A stretch of DNA of 39,483 nt from a virus: positions 1 through 39,483 of IMG/VR virus record IMGVR_UViG_3300042922_000500. The stretch is one strand, 5' to 3'. Position numbers and translations under genes: made by a program. Positions 29,610 to 31,737 of this stretch are shown here, piece after piece (the first letter of the stretch is position 1; the number at the start of each line of letters is the position of its first letter). The notes beneath the pieces were generated by a model. The model searched no databases. It saw nothing but the letters and a program-made list of their open reading frames with translations, and had not been told where the DNA came from.

Positions 29610-30467
29610 TTAACTTACTTTAATTATTTCTTCTTTATCCATTCTTAATTCACTATATTTGTTGTTACAAATATTTTCAACTATTTTAGACCTTTCTTCA
29701 AAATCCACTCCTGCAATAATTAAACCTGTAATCATTGATTGTAAATAATCAATTGCCTTGTTTTGCTCTATAATTAGATGTTCTCTTGTTTGTTCATCAA
29801 GATATCCTAACTTACTCTTTATTTCAGAAGCCGTATATCCTATTAATTCCTTATTTATCATATTGCTTTCTCTAATTCTTAAATATTTCTTATCAAATCC
29901 AGTTACATTAGAATGTTTATTTGCATAATTTTTAATTAATTCTTCAACCATTTTATTATAGTTTTCTTTTTCAGGTTCTCTTACATTTGTATGCTCTGAT
30001 AATCCTTTAATCGCTTTTTCTATTAGTATAAAATATTTTCTTGCCAATTTACTATTTGCTTTTAATTTATCGTTAGTTCTTCCACCTTTTGTACCTGATA
30101 TCATAGCAATTTCTTTAGCAATATCTACTGTTATAAAATATTCTTTTTTATAACCCATACCTGTTAAGTCTGTAACCCTAGTGTTATCAAGGTCGCCTTC
30201 AAAGATTACCCCTTTATCATTAATCCAATTAACAATATAATCACTATTTTCCATAGCGTCAACAATTTCTAAATTGTTTTTAATCCAGTTGGAAAAATCT
30301 TTGCCAACTTCTAATTCTTTATATATAGTTCTAGCATTTACACAACAACCTTGCCCATCATTAGTTAATATTGATGGAAATTTCTTTTGTGCCTCCATTG
30401 TTAATTTAATTTCATCTTCGTTAAATTGTAATACTTCTTGTAAAAATTCTTTTTTAAATTTCTTCAT
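29610..30467 (-). CDS. AntA/AntB-type phage antirepressor
   Basis: Residues ~40-155 match the AntA/AntB antirepressor domain: VNARTIYKELEVGKDFSNWI, then KKEYFITVDIAKEIAMISGT and KLARKYFILIEKAI. Such proteins inactivate lysogeny repressors by binding. The C-terminal ~110 residues are a separate helical region (NVTGFDKKYLRIRESNMINK, LDEQTREHLIIEQNKAIDYL). The ATG is 10 nt after AGGAGG, but that site is paired in a long upstream RNA structure (30478-30582), so translation is likely to be controlled. Second antirepressor in the window. Confidence 0.8.
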   Translation of the reverse strand: MKKFKKEFLQEVLQFNEDEIKLTMEAQKKFPSILTNDGQGCCVNARTIYKELEVGKDFSNWIKNNLEIVDAMENSDYIVNWINDKGVIFEGDLDNTRVTDLTGMGYKKEYFITVDIAKEIAMISGTKGGRTNDKLKANSKLARKYFILIEKAIKGLSEHTNVREPEKENYNKMVEELIKNYANKHSNVTGFDKKYLRIRESNMINKELIGYTASEIKSKLGYLDEQTREHLIIEQNKAIDYLQSMITGLIIAGVDFEERSKIVENICNNKYSELRMDKEEIIKVS

Positions 30468-30827: not shown

Positions 30828-30902
30828 TGGTGCTAGATTGAGGTTACGATCCCCACTCTATAGATTACAAAGCTATTGTTTTACCAAATAAACTAATCCA
30901 GC
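30828..30902 (-). tRNA. tRNA-Thr (anticodon UGU), CCA encoded
   Basis: 75 nt including CCA. Acceptor GCTGGAT/ATCTAGC (one G-U), D arm GTTT/AAAC with GG in the loop, anticodon stem ATAGC/TCTAT with a C-U mismatch at the loop end, loop TTTGTAA giving anticodon UGU, 4-nt variable loop, and T stem TGGGG/CCTCA with one G-U. The T loop is ATCGTAA: positions 54 and 58 are A and U instead of T and A, an exchange of the normally fixed pair. It reads ACA, the common Thr codon of this A/T-rich phage. Probably processed from a transcript that starts upstream of the structured RNA region. Confidence 0.85.
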
Positions 30903-31400
30903 ATATTAAAGAGTTTTAATGCGTGTACTTTGCATTAAGGAAAAACTCACAAACCCTCTTGACTGACACAGTTAGCATAATAGTATAAATTATCGTAAAT
31001 AATATCATAGGCTCTGTCCGGAAAGTGGCTTTTATTGGATTAATCACTCAGAACCTTTTAACGATGTCTACTTTCACTTATCATCAATTTTCTCTGTAAA
31101 AGCTAGAATGATTCTTTTCGTACGGTTCAAAACTCAATACTAAAGTATATTTCTAGTGTATTCATTTGATTTTTCCCAGTTTTCTCTGTAATGGGTATGA
31201 GTTTTAGGTCTTCATCCCGACTTACGTAATATTAGAAAATAATCCCTCCATTACACCGCACTTCCTATGAGTGGTTGGGTTAGAATAATTCTCATATAAA
31301 GAGTCATCACAACTCATTCAACACTTTGTAAAAAGGATTCCTCCTTAATTCTTTCATGTTCATCTGAACCCTAATTTCGTTAAAATGATTGTTTTATATT
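30903..31400 (-). ncRNA. Large structured non-coding RNA candidate adjoining the tRNA (ROOL/GOLLD-like?)
   Basis: About 500 nt without a credible gene, about one third G+C by my count, richer than its surroundings. Many paired arms are visible: TTAATGC/GCATTAA with GAGTT/AACTC near the 3' end (30911-30949); GTAA, GGG and ATGA opposite TTAC, CCC and TCAT (31188-31225); TATGAG/CTCATA (31267-31296); AAGGA/TCCTT (31333-31347). TTACAGAGAAAA occurs twice (about 31088-31099 and 31180-31191). A motif copy stands just upstream and a tRNA just downstream. Very large phage RNAs of the GOLLD and ROOL classes are known to lie beside tRNA genes; membership is a guess from position, size and structure. Confidence 0.55.
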
Positions 31401-31403
31401 ATT

Positions 31404-31415
31404 GTTTAATTTATT
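31404..31415 (-). promoter_or_regulatory. Phage motif copy 20, heading the structured RNA and tRNA
   Basis: AATAAATTAAAC, containing the stop of the 39-codon gene, directly upstream of the non-coding region. Confidence 0.55.
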
Positions 31416-31530
31416 TTTTACATGCAAGTATTGAATTAATCTTATCTATGAATTCATTCATTAGACAAAATACATACAATACTTGTGGTGTTAAATTTTC
31501 ATCTGTAATATCTAATTTTTTAATTCTCAT
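31411..31530 (-). CDS. Hypothetical protein, 39 aa
   Basis: ATG 31530, 9 nt after the stop of the 65-codon gene, encodes MRIKKLDITDENLTPQVLYV and then a helix FCLMNEFIDKINSILACKK. The ribosome binding site is weak (TAGGT). It is probably co-translated with the gene before it. Unrecognised. Confidence 0.5.
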   Translation of the reverse strand: MRIKKLDITDENLTPQVLYVFCLMNEFIDKINSILACKK

Positions 31531-31539
31531 AATATTTAC

Positions 31540-31737
31540 CTATTCTTCTATAGGTTTTAAATCAGAATCTTTATTCACTGATAATGATATACCTTCTACA
31601 TCAACCAATCCATCTAATATGTCAGATAAATCATATGATATACTATCATCTTTGGTAACCTCTGTAATTATGTATTTATCTCCGTCCTTAGTTATAGTTG
31701 CCTTTGTAAAACTAGTTTTAAATGAATTCTTTGCCAT
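31540..31737 (-). CDS. Hypothetical protein, 65 aa
   Basis: ATG after AGGGGGAA. A small beta-strand protein (KATITKDGDKYIITEVTKDD, DGLVDVEGISLSVNKDSDL) with acidic end. It resembles no family I know with certainty. It starts the short unit that leads into the structured RNA. Confidence 0.5.
   Translation of the reverse strand: MAKNSFKTSFTKATITKDGDKYIITEVTKDDSISYDLSDILDGLVDVEGISLSVNKDSDLKPIEE

What the first reader, a model, noticed from the sequence alone, without database searches (positions are those of the whole stretch)
30828..31415. About 500-nt structured RNA joined to a phage tRNA
Seen: a gene-free stretch of raised G+C full of pairable arms, headed by a phage motif and ending at a tRNA with terminator. 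Known: GOLLD and ROOL, very large RNAs of unknown role, are found in phages next to tRNAs, and members form multimeric RNA-only assemblies. Inference: this may be a member of ROOL or a new class.
Basis: partly seen in the sequence, partly recalled or inferred. Interest (0 to 1): 0.8.

Follow-up and report, generated by a model that had tools for sequence, protein, structure and literature searches.

The report
Phage tRNA-linked RNA with pseudoknot module
A roughly 500-letter non-coding stretch that probably shares a transcript with a phage tRNA gene is not one of the known giant phage RNAs, but it carries a small conserved pseudoknot that other phages reuse, in three places as a stand-alone RNA just ahead of a predicted RNA-cutting toxin gene.

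Summary
On the minus strand, about 490 nt without open frames (G+C 0.32, against 0.21 in other intergenic DNA) lie between a recurrent phage promoter-like motif and a tRNA-Thr followed by an AT-rich terminator-like hairpin. Folding energy is no better than shuffled sequence, so "full of pairable arms" is not supported. It is not ROOL or GOLLD. What is real is a 59-nt module at 31165-31223: an H-type pseudoknot plus a hairpin with an A-rich tail. It recurs in about 25 distinct phage or prophage loci, often in tandem, with compensatory changes in 6 of 7 counted pairs. It is a distant relative of Rfam GP20-b. A second short block (31018-30966) is shared with two other phages. In three relatives the same element has its own promoter and terminator and lies directly ahead of a PBECR4 nuclease gene, the layout of a type III toxin-antitoxin locus. 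PBECR4 genes in general follow promoter-RNA-terminator modules (13/28 against 0/62 control genes). My best guess, at modest confidence, is that the window RNA is an orphan array of such modules acting in trans as an antitoxin-like decoy. The remaining ~380 nt has no detected homologue. No function was tested.

The parts
31405..31416 (-). Phage promoter-like motif AAATAAATTAAA (putative site of the phage's own YonO-like RNA polymerase)
   Evidence: 51 matches with up to 1 mismatch, all minus strand, 12.9 expected; 18 of 21 exact copies lie outside long ORFs, many 19-50 nt before gene starts
30903..31400 (-). Non-coding RNA body, about 490 nt, start site inferred
   Evidence: No ORF; raised G+C; no Rfam family at gathering threshold other than the adjacent tRNA
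31165..31223 (-). Module A: GP20-b-like H-type pseudoknot (stem 1 GUC/GAC; stem 2 GAUGA with UCAU-A-C) followed by hairpin CAG-AGAAAA-CUG and tail AAAAAUC
   Evidence: Conserved in many phage loci; compensatory changes; Rfam GP20-b 17.3 bits in window, E 1e-5 to 1e-6 in relatives; R1 model 78.2 bits, but the window is in the model
30966..31018 (-). Module B: GACAGAGCC ... AUGCUAACUGUGU, a second block shared with phage loci L188 and L141
   Evidence: Pattern found only in window and L188 (L188 fetched twice), 0 in reversed control; alignment with L141
30828..30902 (-). tRNA-Thr (UGU), encoded CCA, atypical T loop
   Evidence: ARAGORN and Rfam tRNA, 48.1 bits
30781..30812 (-). AT-rich terminator-like hairpin plus T5
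   Evidence: Sequence, 3' hairpin in the fold; below the GC-pair threshold of the scan

Best explanation
The stretch is a phage-encoded non-coding RNA, probably transcribed from the phage-specific promoter motif together with tRNA-Thr, and built from small, reusable structured modules rather than one large fold. Shown: module A is a conserved H-type pseudoknot plus hairpin, distantly related to Rfam GP20-b, spread through many phages, often in tandem and beside other small phage RNAs or tRNAs. Shown: in three other loci it forms promoter - tandem pseudoknots - terminator - PBECR4 nuclease gene. Inferred: those loci are type III-like toxin-antitoxin systems in which the pseudoknot RNA restrains the nuclease, and the toxin-less copy in this window acts in trans as an antitoxin-like decoy against such nucleases in hosts or rival prophages, as pseudo-ToxI of phage PhiTE does for ToxIN.
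For: Module homology found from whole-RNA nhmmer (L149 E 6e-9, L147 7e-8). 30 pseudoknot units: 98% of cells paired, 6 of 7 pairs with compensatory changes, 0/500 shuffles, and slid controls fall to 29-40% paired. Rfam GP20-b hits the same coordinates in L167, L147 and L172 records at 9.5e-7 to 3.6e-5. New members not used for the model at 51-74 bits. PBECR4 directly downstream in L147, L167, L217; it is the only place PBECR4 occurs in the 25 records and genomes searched. PBECR4 genes generally: promoter and terminator at set spacing in 13/28 against 0/62 controls, A-rich-loop pseudoknot in 8/28 against 0/62. Same type III layout and phage mimicry are published (PMC5086642; PMC3475682).
Against: The window has no PBECR4 gene and only one pseudoknot unit. 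Canonical GP20-b lies 13-19 nt ahead of phage scaffolding genes, which suggests cis regulation. In most phage loci the motif has no nuclease neighbour. Only 3 of the PBECR4 loci carry this particular motif. PBECR4 toxicity and RNA binding are predictions. About 380 nt of the RNA has no detected homologue. Pattern-based retrieval fixes several columns, so conservation is partly by construction.
Confidence: 0.35

Rival explanations
1. Module A is a phage cis-acting RNA element (processing, stability or translation control), bound by a phage or host protein; the window copy protects or sets the end of the tRNA-bearing transcript.
For: Rfam files GP20-b as cis-regulatory; canonical copies precede scaffolding genes PF06810 by 13-19 nt. 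Many phage copies lie directly after a stop codon and before the next gene or at tRNA borders (L155, L172, L169). Two canonical GP20-b copies directly follow tRNAs (L228, L235). The phage encodes a beta-CASP nuclease next door.
Against: In the window no ORF follows within 690 nt of module A. In L147, L167, L217 and L268 the element has its own promoter and terminator and so ends before any gene. tRNA proximity is only weakly above chance (6 observed, 3.1 expected, p about 0.04).
Confidence: 0.35
2. The whole ~500-nt RNA is a new large ornate RNA, functionally like ROOL or GOLLD, of which modules A and B are only parts.
For: Size, place beside a phage tRNA, raised G+C; L188 has a similar long gene-free stretch with module A ahead of a tRNA; a real ROOL shares an island with module A in L172.
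Against: No folding excess; flanking 188 and 263 nt find no homologue in 5.7 Mb searched, both strands; ROOL and GOLLD models do not match.
Confidence: 0.15
3. Mostly unstructured or decayed spacer around one conserved module and a tRNA.
For: Average foldability and absence of homologues for most of the stretch.
Against: G+C well above other intergenic DNA; dedicated promoter motif; a second block shared with two phages.
Confidence: 0.15

Closest known systems
GP20-b RNA (Rfam RF03003)
   Same: Pseudoknot with a UAAAA-type loop followed by a hairpin and A-rich tail; same order and length; significant CM hits in three relatives
   Different: Window scores 17.3 bits against a 36.2 cut-off; different core sequence, tandem units, not ahead of a scaffolding gene
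Type III toxin-antitoxin systems (ToxIN, CptIN, TenpIN)
   Same: In relatives: promoter, tandem short H-type pseudoknots, terminator, RNase gene; one-base first loop and A-rich loop as described for CptI (PMC5086642)
   Different: Predicted nuclease is PBECR4, not a ToxN-family protein; window copy has no toxin gene; function untested
Pseudo-ToxI of phage PhiTE
   Same: Phage intergenic copy of antitoxin-like pseudoknot repeats (PMC3475682)
   Different: Different RNA and different presumed toxin; no infection data here
ROOL and GOLLD RNAs
   Same: Phage-encoded, near tRNAs, similar length
   Different: No CM match; no evidence for a large ornate fold
skipping-rope, drum, DUF3800-XI RNAs
   Same: Small phage RNAs that lie within 100 nt of module A in L169, L171, L191, L161
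   Different: Separate families; none is found in the window

Membership tests
ROOL (RF03087) | Covariance-model score of at least 99.1 bits | tested here: not met
   No match; positive control L172 255.8 bits
ROOL (RF03087) | Phage location near tRNA genes | tested here: met
GOLLD | Rfam covariance-model match | tested here: not met
   No match at gathering or at E<=10
GP20-b (RF03003) | Score at or above 36.2 bits | tested here: not met
   17.3 bits, E 0.13 over 151 nt; relatives 27.6-29.4 bits with E 1e-5 to 1e-6
GP20-b (RF03003) | Same structural layout: pseudoknot, hairpin, A-rich tail | tested here: met
   End-to-end alignment 1-62; pseudoknot supported by covariation
GP20-b (RF03003) | Directly upstream of a phage scaffolding gene | tested here: not met
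   Next feature is tRNA-Thr, then an AntA-type gene
Type III toxin-antitoxin antitoxin | Tandem pseudoknot repeats | tested here: inconclusive
   Met in L147, L167, L217, L268; a single clear unit in the window
Type III toxin-antitoxin antitoxin | Terminator then toxin gene directly downstream | tested here: not met
   Not in the window; met in L147, L167, L217 with PBECR4
Type III toxin-antitoxin antitoxin | RNA neutralises the toxin by direct binding | not testable with these tools
   Needs expression and binding assays
abiF RNA (RF03085) | Rfam covariance-model match | tested here: not met
   No match in the window; nothing above cut-off in 13 relatives

The most novel reading that the evidence does not exclude
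PBECR4 nucleases are the toxins of an undescribed family of type III-like toxin-antitoxin systems with pseudoknot RNA antitoxins, and large Firmicutes phages carry arrays of toxin-less copies of these RNAs, this window among them, as broad RNA decoys against such defences.
Probability: 0.3. Interest if true: 0.88.

Novelty: new variant of a known kind. Interest (0 to 1): 0.58.

Why it matters
Phage genomes are full of small structured RNAs of unknown role near tRNAs. If this one is the toxin-less twin of an RNA that normally guards a nuclease, it gives a concrete and quickly testable role for part of that dark matter (RNA counter-defence), and points to PBECR4 genes as a new toxin family under RNA control.

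Tried and rejected
ROOL and GOLLD: no match. Group I intron and tmRNA: no match. Protein-coding: stops in all frames. Strong self-folding: z about 0. DNA-level homologues in GenBank phages and plasmids: only chance or tRNA matches. Relatives by the adjacent beta-CASP protein in viral contigs: none. YonO-type RNA polymerase relatives: the RNA was not found in them by nhmmer beyond the tRNA, although tRNAs and gene-free stretches recur. abiF antitoxin RNA: not matched. Lookup of the source paper for GP20-b: not held. tRNA adjacency as a defining trait of module A: only weak.

Full report
What is there. The window is a 39,483-base viral contig from a phage with a YonO-like RNA polymerase: its 924-aa protein at 35295-38069 matches SPbeta yonO at about 27% identity and other phage polymerases at 31-57%. 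Nearly all of its long genes run on the minus strand. On that strand, between a 65-aa ORF ending at 31540 and an AntA-type gene starting at 30467, lies a gene-free stretch. A 12-mer, AAATAAATTAAA, sits at 31405-31416; with one mismatch allowed it occurs 51 times in the window, all on the minus strand, against 12.9 expected, and 18 of the 21 exact copies lie outside long ORFs, many 19-50 nt before gene starts. It is most simply a phage promoter. The stretch ends at tRNA-Thr(UGU), 30828-30902, followed by an AT-rich hairpin and five T. G+C is 0.32 against 0.21 in other intergenic DNA.

Is it a highly structured RNA? By energy, no. The minus strand of 30903-31400 folds as well as its shuffles (z -0.29, 78 of 200), and local windows average z +0.2. 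The full 641-nt stretch with tRNA and terminator hairpin gave z -1.45 with 20 shuffles, which those two elements can explain. Rfam gives only the tRNA. ROOL and GOLLD are absent, and the same method finds a genuine ROOL in a related tRNA island at 255.8 bits (L172).

A conserved module. Blast against GenBank phages and plasmids found nothing. An exact 17-mer scan of viral contigs returned seven stretches, and nhmmer with the whole RNA showed similarity running well past the 17-mer (L149 E 5.7e-9, L147 7.3e-8). A degenerate pattern then gave 46 stretches, about 35 of them clearly the same element, the rest coding coincidences. The unit is an H-type pseudoknot: stem 1 GYC/GRC, a one-base loop, stem 2 GRAUGR with YCAU(N)YC, and an A-rich loop NUWAAAC. 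It often occurs twice, 33 nt apart, and is often followed by a hairpin (G)CAG-AGNNAA-CUG(C) with a tail AAAAAUC. In 30 aligned units without gaps, 98% of pair cells are standard pairs, 6 of 7 pairs show compensatory changes, no shuffle of 500 reaches this, and slid partners drop to 29-40%. Because the retrieval pattern fixes some columns, the best unbiased sign is the R-Y pair at columns 11/23, which the pattern let vary freely: G-C 15, A-U 12, G-U 2, A-C none. Units found by other routes add compensatory changes (L103 by a structural scan; second units of L172, L161 and L167; L217).

Relation to Rfam. GP20-b (RF03003) matches this element below its cut-off: 28.7 bits in L167 (E 9.5e-7 in its record), 29.4 in L147 (3.1e-5), 27.6 in L172 (3.6e-5), at the same coordinates as model R1 hits. 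In the window it scores 17.3 bits, E 0.13 over 151 nt, aligned end to end. So module A is a divergent relative of GP20-b, not a filed member. Canonical GP20-b copies in Clostridia lie 13-19 nt ahead of phage scaffolding genes PF06810.

Surroundings of relatives. The element lies in intergenic gaps, sometimes at tRNA borders (L155, L172, L169, L183), but tRNA proximity is only weakly above chance (6 against 3.1 expected, p about 0.04). It lies within 100 nt of skipping-rope (L169), drum (L171) and DUF3800-XI (L191, L161) RNAs. A second block in the window, 31018-30966, recurs in L188 and L141; L141 is the phage whose exonuclease is 63% identical to the window's, and L188 also carries module A ahead of a tRNA. 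These phage RNAs therefore look like arrays of small reusable modules.

A clue to function. In L147, L167 and L217 the element is a complete small-RNA gene: a sigma-70 promoter, two pseudoknots, the hairpin, a Rho-independent terminator, then a gene whose product matches PBECR4 (PF18813; E 1e-15 to 1e-16 for L167 and L217, 3.6e-15 for L147; upstream sequences). Among 25 records and genomes tested (24 of them carrying the motif, plus the window's own), PBECR4 occurs in three, each time directly downstream. L268 shows the same promoter-pseudoknots-terminator unit without a PBECR4 gene in the 3 kb fetched, beside ORFs that look by eye like HEPN/MNT and AbiEi-type genes (the ORF identities were not searched). 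Looking the other way, 28 of 391 Clostridia genomes have PBECR4. Of 28 intact loci (26 from that search plus the two phage loci L266 and L267), 13 have promoter and terminator at set spacing upstream, against 0 of 62 control genes (the strict terminator rule misses visible ones, such as those of L266 and L267), and 8 of 28 against 0 of 62 have an H-type pseudoknot with an A-rich loop, mostly of different sequence. PBECR domains were predicted to be RNases of phages and mobile elements (PMC5512222). Promoter, tandem pseudoknots, terminator, RNase is the layout that defines type III toxin-antitoxin loci (PMC5086642). Phage copies of such repeats can neutralise the toxin, as in PhiTE (PMC3475682), and a related RNA-guarded toxin, AbiF with RCd22, is known in C. 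difficile (PMC12373285). I found no paper in the held library that links PBECR4 to an RNA antitoxin, but that library is partial.

Mechanism. Shown: a conserved pseudoknot module in a non-coding stretch ahead of a phage tRNA, and the same module in toxin-antitoxin-like loci elsewhere. Inferred: the stretch is transcribed as one RNA; the PBECR4 proteins are toxins held by the RNA; the window copy acts in trans as a decoy. Probability about 0.35. The main rival, a cis-acting regulatory or processing element of phage transcripts, is as likely on present evidence. The remaining ~380 nt is unexplained.

Noticed in passing
window, 21 exact minus-strand copies of AAATAAATTAAA: A strictly one-stranded 12-mer, probably the promoter of the phage's YonO-like RNA polymerase, ahead of many genes.
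   Followed up: partly
window:31779-33233: Phage-encoded beta-CASP/RMMBL nuclease (RNase J-like) next to the RNA; relatives only in human-gut phage contigs at 22-33% identity.
   Followed up: no
L236-L265 (upstream of PBECR4 genes): Several further, different families of promoter-RNA-terminator modules ahead of PBECR4, some with tandem GUUG-NNNN-CAAC-A-rich pseudoknots.
   Followed up: partly
L172:75-721: A genuine ROOL RNA (255.8 bits) in a phage tRNA island that also carries module A.
   Followed up: no
L003:18434-19334: About 900-nt gene-free stretch directly ahead of tRNA-Asn and tRNA-Thr in a relative phage, with no Rfam match.
   Followed up: no
L005:15840-16400: By eye, a fragment resembling the end of a TnpB-like gene preceded by structured RNA-like sequence.
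   Followed up: no
window:2701, 6601, 33241, 30481 (starts of 150-nt windows): Stretches with far stronger folding excess (z about -3 to -8 depending on strand) than the reported RNA, probably terminators or other RNAs.
   Followed up: no
L156:7809, L188:2515, L170:2660: Another recurrent short block, GAGGTTGYGAAGCCTACCAAAATC, in phage non-coding stretches with module A.
   Followed up: no
window:30828-30902: tRNA-Thr has an unusual T loop and scores 48 bits against 53-69 in relatives; it may be diverged or specialised.
   Followed up: no
G015:5657-5692: Weak abiF-RNA-like match (24.4 bits, cut-off 37) in a phage that also carries module A and drum RNA.
   Followed up: no
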